From positions 1-7,081 of the forward strand of contig USNJ01000105.1 of assembly GCA_900556055.1 (NCBI GenBank): a stretch of 7,081 bases of DNA, read 5' to 3'. Every line of letters starts with the position of its first letter. Position 1 is the stretch's first letter. The position numbers and the translations under genes were made by a program. This DNA is from an uncultured Ruminococcus sp. GTDB lineage: Bacteria > Bacillota > Clostridia > Oscillospirales > Ruminococcaceae. This document shows, in pieces, positions 12-3,273 of the stretch. Under the pieces are notes generated by a model, which was not told the DNA's origin, did not search any database, and saw only the letters and a list, made by a program, of their open reading frames with translations.

Positions 12-66
12 CAACAACTGAAAAAGCACTCCGAAGCAAAGCTTCTACGCACTTTTTCAGTTGTTG
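12..66. repeat. Long inverted repeat with nested hairpin
   Basis: Two perfect 15-base arms, at 12-26 and 52-66, can pair. Inside the 25-base loop a second small hairpin is possible (GAAGC at 33-37 with GCTTC at 41-45). No T-run follows the stem on either strand, although A/T runs form part of the stem itself. It could end transcription of a gene to the left of the window, or be a palindromic intergenic element. The sequence does not decide between these. Confidence 0.6.
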
Positions 67-137
67 AGCAGACATTATAATAAAAACCATAATTCAATGA
101 GTTTTCGGCATTACACCGAGGAATTTGCCGCAAATTG

Positions 138-166
138 TTGAAATCAAGTGATAAATATGATATAAT
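138..166 (+). promoter_or_regulatory. Sigma-A-type promoter of the agrA-agrC operon
   Basis: A -35 element TTGAAA (138-143) and a perfect -10 element TATAAT (161-166) are separated by exactly 17 bp, and a TG dinucleotide at 158-159 adds an extended -10. The predicted transcript would begin near 173, about 33 bases before the agrA start codon. No pair of LytTR-type 9-bp repeats is visible upstream, unlike at the agrB and agrD promoters, so expression is inferred to be constitutive rather than autoregulated. Confidence 0.75.
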
Positions 167-205: not shown

Positions 206-943
206 ATGCTGTACAGAGCTGCAATTTGCGATGATGAAGCGCAGTGTGCGTCACTCATCGAAAACTATATTACGGAATTTTCACTCAAATCAGACGCAGA
301 ATTCAGGATAACAAAATTTTCTGACGGCAATGCACTTCTGGAATGCTACAAAACAGAACGCTCTCCCTTTGATATCGTTTTCCTGGACATGGAAATGCCC
401 GGGAAAAGCGGTCTGGAAACGGCTGAGGAGATACGCCGAATACCCGACAGGAACGTACTTATAGTGTTTGTCACCAGCTTCCCCGACTATATGCAGGACA
501 GCTTCGATGTTCAGGCGGCGCAGTATCTCTGCAAGCCCGTTCCCTATGAGATGTTTGAAAAAAAGCTGAAAAAAATACTCGCCTACTTAGACGAGCTGGA
601 AACGAATATCACGGTCATAACCAACAAAGACGGCGAGCGGGTGCTTCATCTGAGCGAGATAGTCTGCATCGAGGCGGACAGGCTGCACGGTGTCGCCATA
701 ACGCTCAGGGACGGGAAAATCATCGCAAAGCAGAGGCTTGCGGAGTTTGAAGAGGCGCTTGCGGGCAGGGGCTTTGTCAGCGTTCACCGCTCATGCCTTG
801 CGAATATGAGGTTCGTAAAGCGGTTCAGTGCGGACGAGATGGAGTTTTCTACGGGAAAAACGGTCCGCATAAGCAGACGCAAAATGCCTGAGGTGAAGGA
901 GGCATTTTCAAGATACACGATAGCGAGGTTAAAGAATGAATGA
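206..943 (+). CDS. agrA: LytTR-family response regulator, AgrA-like
   Basis: This is the DNA-binding response regulator of the agr quorum-sensing system. It is expected to be phosphorylated by the adjacent AgrC-like kinase and then to activate the agrB and agrD promoters. The 245-residue protein has a receiver domain (about 3-125) with the acidic cluster D9-D10-E11, phosphoacceptor D61 in FLDMEMPG, T90 and K110. A LytTR DNA-binding domain (about 135-238) follows, with the typical stretches FVSVHRSCLANMRFV and RISRRKMPEV. Length is usual for AgrA proteins. The ATG is preceded by GAGG (196-199) at a suitable distance. The last codons overlap the start of the kinase gene by 8 bp, which indicates translational coupling. 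The symbol is given by family and context; orthology to Staphylococcus agrA in the strict sense is not shown. Confidence 0.9.
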   Translation: MLYRAAICDDEAQCASLIENYITEFSLKSDAEFRITKFSDGNALLECYKTERSPFDIVFLDMEMPGKSGLETAEEIRRIPDRNVLIVFVTSFPDYMQDSFDVQAAQYLCKPVPYEMFEKKLKKILAYLDELETNITVITNKDGERVLHLSEIVCIEADRLHGVAITLRDGKIIAKQRLAEFEEALAGRGFVSVHRSCLANMRFVKRFSADEMEFSTGKTVRISRRKMPEVKEAFSRYTIARLKNE

Positions 944-2222
944 TGTTGCTATGGCTGTCCTTGCGGTGCTGGGGACAGTCTTTGATATGTTCACGACGAT
1001 GTTTTTTCTGAGGGTATGTCTTGGAAATGACAGCATCAGGGTGAACAGGGTGCTTTTTTATCTGCTGTATGTTCTGGATTTCGGTGCGGGAATGGCACTC
1101 AGTCAGTTCGGTGCGGCGGGGATATTCTACGTTATAATGACGCTTGTGCTGCATATCCTGCTGACGCTGATGTACCGCTCAAAATGGACTGCCAGGATAT
1201 TTGCGGCTTGCTCGCTTCTTGTTTTCAGCATGATATCCGAGGTGATAAGCTACGGCATCTCAACGTCAACGCTTCGGAACATATCCGACAGCGATATGCA
1301 GTTTTACAGCCTTATGCTCTCAAAGCTGATAACGTTCATAATAGCTGCGGCTGTTTCGCTCATCATAAGGCGGAAAAACACGCAGGTCGTCAGCGGACGG
1401 GATTATGCGCTTTTCATCATCACGCCTGTTATAAGCATCATCACGGTAATTGTGATATCCTTCGAGCTGGACACGGGTGCGCCGAATGCCGCCTCGGGAA
1501 TATGCTTTGCTGCGGCGGGTCTGATGGTGATAAATCTCGTAGTATATTATCTGCTTGAAAATATCATCGAAGCGGCTGAACTGCGTGAAAAACAGATGCG
1601 CACGGAGCAGCAGCTTGAATATCAGGAGGAAAAATATGAGCAGACCGCACGCTCGTTCAACAGCATCAGGAGCGTGATCCATGATACGAACAAGCATCTG
1701 CTGTATCTGAACCAATGTCTTGAAAAGGAATTATATGATGAAGCAAAGCGGTATACTGAAACCGCTGCGGAGCATCTGAAAAGCTCATTCTGCCGCATAA
1801 ACACGGGATATCTCCCGATAGATGCACTGGTGAGCAATGCTCTGAGCCGTGCCGAGGCTGACGGAATAAAATTCACAAGCGATATAAATATCGACAAAAG
1901 CAGGATAAATATCGAGCGGTATGACCTATGCACGGCACTCGGAAACCTTCTGGACAATGCCCATGAGGCGTGCGTGAAATGTGCGGAGGGCGAAAGGTCG
2001 ATATCCCTTTCAATAAAAACAACGGACGATTCGCTTGCGATAGATATCGTGAACACTGCACCGGAAAATGTCGGCGCAGACCTGAAAACAGACAAGGAAA
2101 ACAAGCTCCTGCACGGCTTCGGCATAGGCAATGTCCGTGCTGCGGCTGAGAAATACGGCGGAGTTCTTACTGTCACCCGTCAGGGAGATACGTTTGAAGC
2201 GGCGCTTATTTTCCCTCTCTGA
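936..2222 (+). CDS. agrC: AgrC-like sensor histidine kinase (GHKL)
   Basis: This is the membrane sensor for the cyclic peptide signal, which passes phosphate to the AgrA-like regulator encoded just before it. The first ~210 of 428 residues are a polytopic sensor with about six or seven hydrophobic segments (roughly 5-27, 39-56, 62-80, 87-107, 125-145, 157-177, 187-208). A charged coiled-coil-like linker (about 210-240) leads to the dimerisation region with the histidine box VIHDTNKHLLYL, where H249 is the expected phosphorylation site. The ATPase domain follows, with the N box LGNLLDNAHEA (N341) and the G box HGFGIGNV (393-400), then the GGVL strand-turn typical of AgrC/GHKL kinases. GAGG at 925-928 serves as the ribosome binding site. 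The regulator-before-kinase order is the reverse of the Staphylococcus order. Confidence 0.9.
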   Translation: MNDVAMAVLAVLGTVFDMFTTMFFLRVCLGNDSIRVNRVLFYLLYVLDFGAGMALSQFGAAGIFYVIMTLVLHILLTLMYRSKWTARIFAACSLLVFSMISEVISYGISTSTLRNISDSDMQFYSLMLSKLITFIIAAAVSLIIRRKNTQVVSGRDYALFIITPVISIITVIVISFELDTGAPNAASGICFAAAGLMVINLVVYYLLENIIEAAELREKQMRTEQQLEYQEEKYEQTARSFNSIRSVIHDTNKHLLYLNQCLEKELYDEAKRYTETAAEHLKSSFCRINTGYLPIDALVSNALSRAEADGIKFTSDINIDKSRINIERYDLCTALGNLLDNAHEACVKCAEGERSISLSIKTTDDSLAIDIVNTAPENVGADLKTDKENKLLHGFGIGNVRAAAEKYGGVLTVTRQGDTFEAALIFPL

Positions 2223-2295: not shown

Positions 2296-2302
2296 CTGAT
2301 GG

Positions 2303-2333
2303 GGCAGCCTGTTATTTGCGGGCTGCCTGTTTT
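2303..2333 (+). terminator. Probable rho-independent terminator of agrAC
   Basis: A G+C-rich 7-bp perfect stem (GGCAGCC at 2303-2309 with GGCTGCC at 2321-2327, loop of 11) is followed by TGTTTT (2328-2333). This fits a modest terminator for + strand transcripts coming out of agrC. On the - strand the flank is not T-rich, so agrD transcripts may stop further on, at the 2246-2295 hairpin. Confidence 0.5.
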
Positions 2334-2361: not shown

Positions 2362-2514
2362 TCAGTTTTTCCGCATTTCCTTCAGCCGGTCGGGAAGCTC
2401 GGGTTCGTGGAAGAAGAAATGACAATAAGGGTTGAGTGCAACTACGTTGAACATAAACGCAAATGCTGCCAGAGATGTGCCGAACTTGATGATCATTTTC
2501 TTTACGTTTTTCAT
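2362..2514 (-). CDS. agrD: AgrD-like cyclic autoinducer peptide precursor (50 aa)
   Basis: This small gene encodes the precursor of the agr signal peptide. Its layout is that of AgrD: a basic, amphipathic N-terminal leader (MKNVKKMIIKFGTSLAAF), a core containing the only cysteine (NPYCHFFF, C31), and an acidic, proline-containing C-terminal tail (HEPELPDRLKEM). Aligned with the known Listeria precursor (CFMFV followed by YEPKSP) and Staphylococcus type I (CDFIM followed by DEVEVP), the expected thiolactone ring is C31 to F35, with cleavage by AgrB between F35 and H36. The N-terminal trimming point cannot be predicted. The start ATG has AAAGGCGG (2523-2530) 8 bases upstream. It lies 83 bases after agrB on the same strand, has its own promoter and LytTR operator, and converges on agrC. 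Confidence 0.88.
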   Translation of the reverse strand: MKNVKKMIIKFGTSLAAFAFMFNVVALNPYCHFFFHEPELPDRLKEMRKN

Positions 2515-2530: not shown

Positions 2531-2546
2531 CAAATATTATAGCTAT

Positions 2547-2614
2547 ATCATAGCACATATTTGAAGCTGTGTACGGATTTTCGTATGAACGGTCGGATTA
2601 TGCAGCCGAACGGT
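2547..2614 (-). promoter_or_regulatory. agrD promoter with tandem LytTR/AgrA operator
   Basis: Read on the - strand, ACCGTTCGG (2606-2614) and ACCGTTCAT (2585-2593) are direct repeats separated by 12 bp. Both fully match the published LytTR half-site pattern [TA][AC][CA]GTTN[AG][TG], and the 12-bp spacer is the AgrA one. Exactly 32 bp downstream is the extended -10 TGC-TATGAT (-10 at 2547-2552). The expected -35 position holds only a poor hexamer, which suits an activator-dependent promoter. The inferred transcript starts near 2540 and has a leader of about 26 bases. The operator spans the last codons and TAA of agrB. Confidence 0.82.
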
Positions 2615-3170
2615 ATTTTATCCTGCCGATGACCATTGAAACGACAGCCATCGACATACTTTCCAGCACAGCATACGCATACAGGCTGTCAAGCATGAGC
2701 AGCACAAAGACTGCCGCAGAGAATACCGCGGCAAGGGCAAGGGATATCCTGCGGTTCCTGACCTTCTGAGTGTCCGACATAGGCTTGTTCGGGCTTGCGG
2801 CGGGTGCGAGAAAAACCACTGCCGCAGCTTCCGCAGCGCAGATCAGTACGCATTGGACCGCCGAAAAGGAGAGCCTTCCGTAGGTGAGAATGACTGTCAG
2901 GAACACCGCTGTCGACATAAGATAGCATCCGCCTGCCGAATTGCAGTGAAATCCGCCTGCCATGCTTCGCAAAGGAATGAACACAAGCATGAATATCAGC
3001 GCAGCGGGAAATTCTCCGAGAAGTGCGCCGATTATTATCGCAGAGAGCAGGTTTGCCGCCGTTTCGAGCATAGTTCCGAAGCAGTAGATGTAGAGGCTGC
3101 GTTCCTCGCTTTTCAGCGTGCCGCCTTCAATAAGAGTATCGGTCAGGAATGTGCTGATGCGGTCAAACAA
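2598..3170 (-). CDS. agrB: AgrB-like membrane cysteine endopeptidase
   Basis: This membrane protease cuts the AgrD-like precursor at its C-terminal side and closes the thiolactone ring. The protein has 190 residues, the usual AgrB size, and several hydrophobic segments (about 36-64, 84-98, 104-122, 142-160, 163-182). The catalytic pair is visible in LRSMAGGFHCNSAGGC: H75 and C82, seven residues apart as in Staphylococcus AgrB (H77/C84). The family motif PNKP is at 127-130. The start is TTG at 3170, supported by a strong AGGAGGG site 6 bases upstream; no better ATG fits. Its substrate gene agrD follows on the same strand. It is likely induced by the AgrA-like regulator through the operator upstream. 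Confidence 0.9.
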   Translation of the reverse strand: MFDRISTFLTDTLIEGGTLKSEERSLYIYCFGTMLETAANLLSAIIIGALLGEFPAALIFMLVFIPLRSMAGGFHCNSAGGCYLMSTAVFLTVILTYGRLSFSAVQCVLICAAEAAAVVFLAPAASPNKPMSDTQKVRNRRISLALAAVFSAAVFVLLMLDSLYAYAVLESMSMAVVSMVIGRIKYRSAA

Positions 3171-3176
3171 GATGCT

Positions 3177-3183
3177 CCCTCCT
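3177..3183 (-). promoter_or_regulatory. Ribosome binding site deciding the TTG start of agrB
   Basis: AGGAGGG on the - strand, 6 bases before the TTG codon at 3170. A near-consensus site at this distance makes TTG the best start, and the protein begun there has the normal AgrB N-terminus and length. Confidence 0.8.
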
Positions 3184-3205
3184 ATCGGGTAACGATAACA
3201 TCTTT

Positions 3206-3273
3206 ATGATAGCACATTTTCGGCGCAGCGCACGTTTTTTCGGCTGAACGGTCGTTTTTTGATGCTGAACGGT
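3206..3273 (-). promoter_or_regulatory. agrB promoter with tandem LytTR/AgrA operator
   Basis: Two identical 9-mers ACCGTTCAG (3265-3273 and 3244-3252, - strand) are spaced by 12 bp, giving the 21-bp period (two helical turns) bound by AgrA-type LytTR dimers. After a 32-bp gap comes the extended -10 TGC-TATCAT (-10 at 3206-3211). No acceptable -35 hexamer is seen at 17 bp. The inferred leader is about 29 bases long. The whole module aligns with the agrD promoter, including the shared ATGTGCTAT before and into the -10. Confidence 0.85.

What the first reader, a model, noticed from the sequence alone, without database searches (positions are those of the whole stretch)
2547..3273. Twin LytTR operators with identical geometry at agrB and agrD
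Two promoters 659 bp apart both carry a pair of ACCGTTC-type 9-mers with a 12-bp spacer, both have exactly 32 bp from operator to -10, and both share an extended -10 preceded by ATGTGC. All four half-sites match the published LytTR pattern. The similarity extends through the roughly 70-bp module, which suggests a duplicated regulatory cassette controlled by the AgrA-like protein encoded at 206-943. The pattern can be used to find other regulon members in the genome.
Basis: partly seen in the sequence, partly recalled or inferred. Interest (0 to 1): 0.8.

Follow-up and report, generated by a model that had tools for sequence, protein, structure and literature searches.

The report
Twin quorum-sensing switches before agrB, agrD
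In an unnamed bacterium, probably a gut relative of the Oscillospiraceae, two genes predicted to make a quorum-sensing peptide each carry the same kind of 30-base tandem repeat at the same distance from a promoter-like box; the AgrA-like protein encoded next door would likely bind both and boost signal production, which differs from the textbook agr system in giving the peptide gene its own switch.

Summary
Two ACCGTTCNN-N12-ACCGTTCNN operators (3244-3273 and 2585-2614, minus strand) each lie 32 bp from TATCAT or TATGAT, before agrB and agrD. A motif-blind test finds nothing like it in 500 shuffles. AgrA (receiver plus LytTR), AgrB and AgrD pass curated cut-offs. In 47 loci fetched by AgrB similarity, exact half-site pairs occur 15 times at 21 bp and at most twice at any other distance, but in only 8 loci. 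Of 15 forward operators tabulated, 14 have TAnnnT at 32-33 bp. The agrD operator overlaps the end of agrB; in 30 of 34 long-tailed AgrB homologues the C-terminus reads like the operator translated, in two frames, which points to selection on DNA. One relative has further copies before bacteriocin-like genes. The geometry matches published AgrA and PlnC sites, so this is a new variant of a known kind: the peptide gene has its own operator. The bare motif is no use for genome scans (26 hits against 28 for the reversed control, 396 genomes). Control by AgrA is inferred, not shown.

The parts
206..943 (+). agrA: response regulator, 245 aa, receiver domain plus LytTR DNA-binding domain
   Evidence: Pfam PF00072 58.2 bits and PF04397 52.4 bits, both above cut-off; Asp61 invariant in the 21 sequences aligned
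936..2222 (+). agrC-like sensor histidine kinase, 428 aa, GHKL type
   Evidence: PF14501 75.2 bits, cut-off 22; match to staphylococcal AgrC model far below its cut-off
138..166 (+). agrAC promoter candidate, TTGAAA-N17-TATAAT, no operator beside it
   Evidence: promoter scan 11 of 12 matches with TG before the -10; no operator match at 1-205 with up to 3 mismatches
2598..3170 (-). agrB: peptide-processing membrane endopeptidase by homology, 190 aa, TTG start
   Evidence: PF04647 121.9 bits, cut-off 23
2362..2514 (-). agrD: autoinducer precursor by homology, 50 aa, predicted thiolactone core around CHFFF
   Evidence: TIGR04223 25.9 bits, cut-off 19; CxFFFHE kept in L001, L002, L003 and in P0184, P0185
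3265..3273 (-). agrB operator, distal half-site ACCGTTCAG
3244..3252 (-). agrB operator, proximal half-site ACCGTTCAG
3206..3211 (-). agrB extended -10 candidate (TGC-TATCAT), 32 bp from operator
2606..2614 (-). agrD operator, distal half-site ACCGTTCGG, inside the end of agrB (reads Y-R-S)
2585..2593 (-). agrD operator, proximal half-site ACCGTTCAT
2547..2552 (-). agrD extended -10 candidate (TGC-TATGAT), 32 bp from operator
2536..2565 (-). alternative agrD promoter TTCAAA-N18-TATAAT, its -10 starting 11 bp after the operator-linked -10
   Evidence: promoter scan, 10 of 12 matches
2302..2328 (+). terminator-like hairpin after agrC

Best explanation
The two 30-bp tandem repeats, each 32 bp from a -10-like box before agrB and agrD, are likely operators at which the AgrA-like LytTR regulator encoded at 206-943 is predicted to bind as a dimer and switch on both predicted signal-making genes. 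Shown: the repeats, their identical geometry, the neighbouring agr-type genes, and the recurrence of the geometry in relatives. Inferred: AgrA, phosphorylated by the AgrC-like kinase when the AgrD-derived peptide accumulates, sits at about -74 to -45, on one face of the DNA because the repeats are two helical turns apart, and recruits or bends DNA for RNA polymerase at promoters that have an extended -10 but no recognisable -35. No terminator-like site was called between agrB and agrD, so agrD would be transcribed both from the agrB promoter and from its own. That would raise the consumed precursor (AgrD) over the catalytic enzyme (AgrB). The agrAC promoter candidate has near-consensus boxes and no operator, so feedback in this lineage would run through signal supply rather than through receptor and regulator levels.
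For: Operators and spacing. Gene identities. In 47 loci fetched by AgrB similarity, not by the motif, exact AYCRTTY pairs peak at 21 bp: 15 distinct pairs, at most 2 at any other distance from 10 to 50, in 8 of the 47 loci, two of which (L031, L043) look like chance. Of 15 forward operators tabulated (7 before agrB, 4 before agrD, 4 before other genes; window included) 14 have TAnnnT at 32 or 33 bp; background is 0.029 per position. Long-tailed AgrB homologues end in a peptide image of the operator, 28 in one frame and 2 in another, together 30 of the 34 with tails of 14 aa or more; the same patterns hit once in residues 1-175 of the 63 proteins. Seven of the 15 modules (all in relatives) have TTGACA 19 nt before the -10 position (read), the kind of over-long spacer reported for S. 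aureus P2 (18) and P3 (20), where the repeats centre near -60 (PMC4227749, passages); the window operators centre near -60 if the boxes are the -10s.
Against: No binding or expression data. The window's genome is not held, so targets beyond agrB and agrD are unknown. The window modules lack the TTGACA seen in some relatives. agrD has a second possible promoter with a better -10 (TATAAT). Of the 47 AgrB loci 39 have no exact 21-bp pair, so the arrangement belongs to a limited clade. L001 4130 has an operator but no TAnnnT box. The tail evidence comes from related proteins, not independent events, and only the window and L001-L003 were seen at the DNA level.
Confidence: 0.77

Rival explanations
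1. Only the agrB operator matters; agrD is driven by read-through from agrB and by the separate TTCAAA-N18-TATAAT promoter, and the second operator is a decaying copy.
For: A 10-of-12 promoter match lies at 2565-2536, and no terminator-like site is called between agrB and agrD on the minus strand. The agrD half-sites differ from each other in their last two bases (GG, AT), the agrB ones do not.
Against: Both agrD half-sites keep all seven core bases and the exact 32-bp distance. L001, L002 and L003 keep an operator at the same place with TAnnnT at 32 bp. AgrB tails in 30 of 34 long-tailed homologues read like it.
Confidence: 0.12
2. The operators are sites of repression, or of a different LytTR regulator encoded elsewhere, rather than of activation by the adjacent AgrA.
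For: PlnD, a LytTR-type regulator, binds the same repeats as the activator PlnC and represses (PMC2714321, passages). Related genomes hold several AgrA-like regulators: 6 matches each in G002 and G003, some of them fragments.
Against: The promoters have no recognisable -35, which suits activation; the operator lies upstream of the promoter rather than over it; agrA is the only LytTR protein among the 7 window proteins tested and sits in the same locus in L001 and L003.
Confidence: 0.15
3. The match between the two modules is only recent shared ancestry or base composition, with no function for the exact spacing.
For: The two window modules are set apart from the rest (support 92 and 96); the bare motif pair is at chance level in 396 genomes (26 against 28 control).
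Against: Spacing and -10 distance are kept in L001-L003, whose AgrB is 52-56% identical and whose module interiors are only 32-48% identical to the window agrB module.
Confidence: 0.04

Closest known systems
Staphylococcus aureus agr P2/P3 with AgrA (PMC4227749, passages read)
   Same: AgrA, AgrB, AgrC and AgrD parts; AgrA binds direct repeats upstream of two promoters, centred near -60; promoters are weak without AgrA
   Different: In S. aureus the operators serve P2 and P3 (P3 for RNAIII; recalled). Here they serve agrB and agrD separately, agrAC is on the other strand with its own promoter candidate, and no Rfam family reached its cut-off in the window
Plantaricin regulon of Lactobacillus plantarum C11, PlnC/PlnD (PMC2714321, passages read)
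   Same: 9-bp tandem repeats with a 12-bp spacer directly upstream of five promoters shared by two LytTR-type regulators; bacteriocin genes among the targets, as before bacteriocin-like genes in L002
   Different: Repeat consensus there is TACGTTAAT, not ACCGTTCAG; the inducer is a double-glycine peptide (recalled), not AgrD processed by AgrB
Clostridium acetobutylicum agrBD/agrCA (PMC10301443, passages read)
   Same: agr genes in two transcription units; an adjacent gene is controlled by agr
   Different: There agrBD appear to form one operon; no tandem operator for agrD appears in the passages seen

Membership tests
agr-type peptide quorum sensing | AgrB endopeptidase | tested here: met
   PF04647, 121.9 bits, cut-off 23
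agr-type peptide quorum sensing | AgrD precursor with Cys core and acidic Pro-containing tail | tested here: met
   TIGR04223 25.9 bits, cut-off 19; CHFFFHEPELP in the sequence
agr-type peptide quorum sensing | AgrC kinase | tested here: inconclusive
   GHKL ATPase PF14501 met; staphylococcal AgrC model 27.8 bits against a cut-off of 500; transmembrane part not tested
agr-type peptide quorum sensing | AgrA with LytTR domain | tested here: met
   PF00072 and PF04397 above cut-off
agr-type peptide quorum sensing | agrB and agrD under one shared regulated promoter (usual organisation, recalled) | tested here: not met
   Each gene has its own operator and -10 candidate; read-through not excluded. 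This is organisation rather than a part, so it marks a variant
LytTR tandem operator | two direct 9-bp repeats, 12-bp spacer, upstream of a promoter | tested here: met
LytTR tandem operator | binding by the cognate LytTR protein | not testable with these tools
   needs EMSA or footprinting
Pln-type bacteriocin regulon | same operator before bacteriocin genes | tested here: inconclusive
   None in the window. In L002 operators precede three short peptide genes with double-glycine-like leaders: one has no family match, two match TIGR03949 (one of them also PF10439), all below cut-off; a C39 exporter (TIGR01193) above cut-off follows

The most novel reading that the evidence does not exclude
In this clade the LytTR operator is the modular joint of the whole system: every gene is a stop-codon-to-operator cassette with its own AgrA switch (agrB, agrD, bacteriocins), an inverted operator abuts the agrA -35 box, the operator dictates the AgrB C-terminus in whatever frame it falls, and loci recombine or move at the operators, as two copies in one genome bin diverge exactly there.
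Probability: 0.2. Interest if true: 0.65.

Novelty: new variant of a known kind. Interest (0 to 1): 0.42.

Why it matters
It gives a concrete, testable wiring for a quorum-sensing system outside the well-studied pathogens: separate autoinduction of processing enzyme and peptide precursor, with receptor and regulator left under a promoter that has no operator. It predicts AgrD in excess over AgrB and a feedback loop that runs through signal supply. In one relative the same switch stands before bacteriocin-like genes, which would tie cell density to competition. It is also a clean case in which a DNA operator appears to shape the end of the protein whose gene it overlaps.

Tried and rejected
Whole-genome regulon of the window: not possible, no genome held. 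Bare-motif scan as regulon finder: rejected; 26 exact pairs in 22 of 396 genomes against 28 for the reversed control (control summed by hand from its table). Of these 26 sites, 7 have TAnnnT at 31-34 bp: two in G100, three in G296, one each in G250 and G182. Inverted-operator pattern ending in ATTG: 6 sites in 5 of 396 genomes, control 2 sites; 4 of the 6 lie upstream of agrA-type genes (two in G002, one each in G115 and G128), and the other two (G175, G096) lack the promoter that follows in the rest. Spacing count on all loci (23 pairs at 21 bp) set aside because some loci had been fetched with the motif; one search uses only protein-fetched loci. AgrB tail count (27 + 2) replaced (28 + 2), because the first script missed one shortened protein (P0059). 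Phage and plasmid origin: no AgrB relative in IMG/VR or PLSDB. Known RNA element: no Rfam match at gathering score in the window. Solved structure by sequence for the LytTR domain alone: no convincing match, best E-value 0.52. Module tree: 15 short modules, most internal supports low, so no duplication history is claimed. Literature: seven searches; I saw listings and starts of abstracts, plus passages of five papers, and noticed no agrD-specific AgrA operator. The library is open-access only, so this is no proof of absence.

Full report
What is in the window. The window holds an agr-like locus. On the plus strand agrA (206-943) and an agrC-like kinase (936-2222) follow a near-consensus promoter candidate (TTGAAA-N17-TATAAT, 138-166). 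On the minus strand lie agrB (3170-2598) and agrD (2514-2362), convergent with agrAC. AgrA has receiver and LytTR domains, AgrB and AgrD pass their curated cut-offs, and the kinase has a GHKL ATPase domain. An aspartate aminotransferase and a peptidoglycan-binding, SpoIID-like protein lie to the right. No bacteriocin gene was recognised. The source genome is not held. The 99% identical AgrB and AgrA entries lie on contigs of at most 1,754 and 1,694 bases; the nearest relatives with a title are Clostridia and Oscillospiraceae metagenome assemblies, two of them from animal guts by their titles.

Both tandem repeats, the 12-bp spacer, the 32 bp to TATCAT or TATGAT and the shared ATGTGC are present. 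A motif-blind test finds no other 7-mer repeated at one fixed distance at two places, and none in 500 shuffles. The agrD operator's distal half-site is inside agrB: TAC CGT TCG GCT GCA TAA.

Relatives. Four loci were fetched from genome contigs by protein similarity. L004 (AgrB 25% identical) has no such operator. L001, L002 and L003 have AgrB 52-56% identical to the window's. L001 and L003 carry agrA-agrC-operator-agrB-operator-agrD-operator on one strand; L002 is the same but its stretch begins inside agrA. L019, L020 and L041, fetched in the same way from a related family (58 of 297 genomes had an AgrB match), also have the operator before agrB. In the 47 loci fetched by AgrB similarity, exact AYCRTTY pairs occur 15 times at 21 bp and at most twice at any other distance from 10 to 50; they are found in 8 of the 47, so most AgrB loci lack them. 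In two of the 8 (L031, L043) the pair looks like chance. I tabulated 15 forward operators, seven before agrB, four before agrD and four others; 14 have TAnnnT at 32-33 bp. Two of the 15 (L002 2787, L003 2933) have one half-site mismatch; L001 4130 lacks the box. In 12 of the 15 the operator starts within 3 nt of the previous gene's stop codon or overlaps that gene (read; exceptions: window agrB, L001 agrB, L002 5146).

Operator written into AgrB. Among 63 AgrB homologues, 58 could be anchored at their C-terminus and 34 of these have a tail of 14 residues or more. In 30 of the 34 the tail contains two copies of T/A-V/I-x or P-F seven residues apart, which is the operator translated in two frames (28 and 2). 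Of the other four, P0011 and P0049 differ by one residue and P0026 and P0040 keep one copy. Three short-tailed proteins (P0001, which stands for the window, P0002, and P0045, which ends like L003) read the first half-site in the third frame, as Y/C-R-S, and stop within the operator. The two patterns hit once in residues 1-175 of all 63 proteins. The most economical reading is that the DNA is conserved and the protein follows. These proteins are related, so this is not 30 independent cases, and DNA was seen only for the window and L001-L003.

Other targets in relatives. In L002 the third and fourth operators precede genes for peptides with double-glycine-like leaders; of the three, one matches no family and two match bacteriocin models below cut-off; an S41 protease lies between, and a C39 peptidase exporter above its cut-off follows. 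In L001, L003, two contigs of G002, G003:C119, G128 and G115 an operator in reverse orientation lies one base from TTGnnn-N17-TAnnnT before an agrA-type gene. The window lacks it. G002's two agrA 5' ends (C26, C33) are identical for 38 nt inward from this operator (79 of the first 85 without gaps) and differ from the first base outward; this could reflect mobility or a mixed-strain bin. L001 and G002 C26 are identical over 329 nt from this operator inward although G001 and G002 were searched as different families, which could be transfer or mis-binning.

Mechanism. Published work gives the template. AgrA binds as a dimer to direct repeats centred near -60 at S. aureus P2 and P3, whose -35/-10 spacers are too long (18 and 20), and is thought to bend DNA (PMC4227749, passages). 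PlnC and PlnD need 9-bp repeats with a 12-bp spacer, found at five promoters (PMC2714321, passages). The window fits, with operators at about -74 to -45 if the -10 boxes are right. Seven of the 15 modules, all in relatives, have TTGACA 19 nt before the -10 position (read; in L001 4130 the -10 itself is missing). The window instead has extended -10s and no -35. With no terminator-like site called between agrB and agrD, agrD would receive read-through plus its own start. These steps are inferred.

Duplicated cassette? The window pair is more alike (66% outside the motifs) than either is to relatives' modules (at most 52%) and is set apart with support 92 and 96. Since L001-L003 also have both modules, a simple recent duplication does not suffice; gene conversion or shared constraint is as likely.

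As a search tool. The exact pair is at chance level across 396 genomes of a related family (26 against 28 reversed). With the -10 filter 7 of the 26 remain, among them a second lineage with twin operators (G100, G296).

Verdict. A real pair of LytTR-type operators, conserved within a limited clade; a variant of known agr and Pln-type wiring, with control by AgrA still to be shown.

Noticed in passing
L128 6284-6551 (G100) and L129 3776-3513 minus (G296): Twin near-identical operators 264-268 bp apart downstream of a LytTR-type regulator and a kinase (by likeness of sequence, no profile run). The first stands before a stretch in which my scan saw no ORF of 30 aa with a ribosome site but which folds into strong hairpins with a terminator-like end, alike in both genomes: a candidate regulator-driven small RNA. 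No credible Rfam match. The two genomes are close relatives, so the likeness alone proves little.
   Followed up: partly
L095 (G002:C26), L096 (G002:C33), L001 867-894: Two agrA 5' ends in one genome bin match inward from the inverted operator and diverge at once outward; near the C33 copy are ORFs that look (by eye, no profile run) like a site-specific recombinase and a mobile-element helicase, hinting that the locus moves.
   Followed up: partly
L014, L081, L130, L001, L003, L095, L096: Inverted operator exactly one base from the -35 of agrA-type promoters (A-TTGnnn-N17-TAnnnT) in several lineages, absent in the window.
   Followed up: partly
window 13-67: Inverted repeat CAACAACTGAAAAAG...CTTTTTCAGTTGTTG upstream of agrA, perhaps a terminator or small repeat element (seen).
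   Followed up: no
L097 9550-11386 (G128): agr locus with broken agrA (stops inside) and fragmentary agrC and agrB beside a second, intact LytTR regulator and double-glycine-like peptide genes.
   Followed up: no
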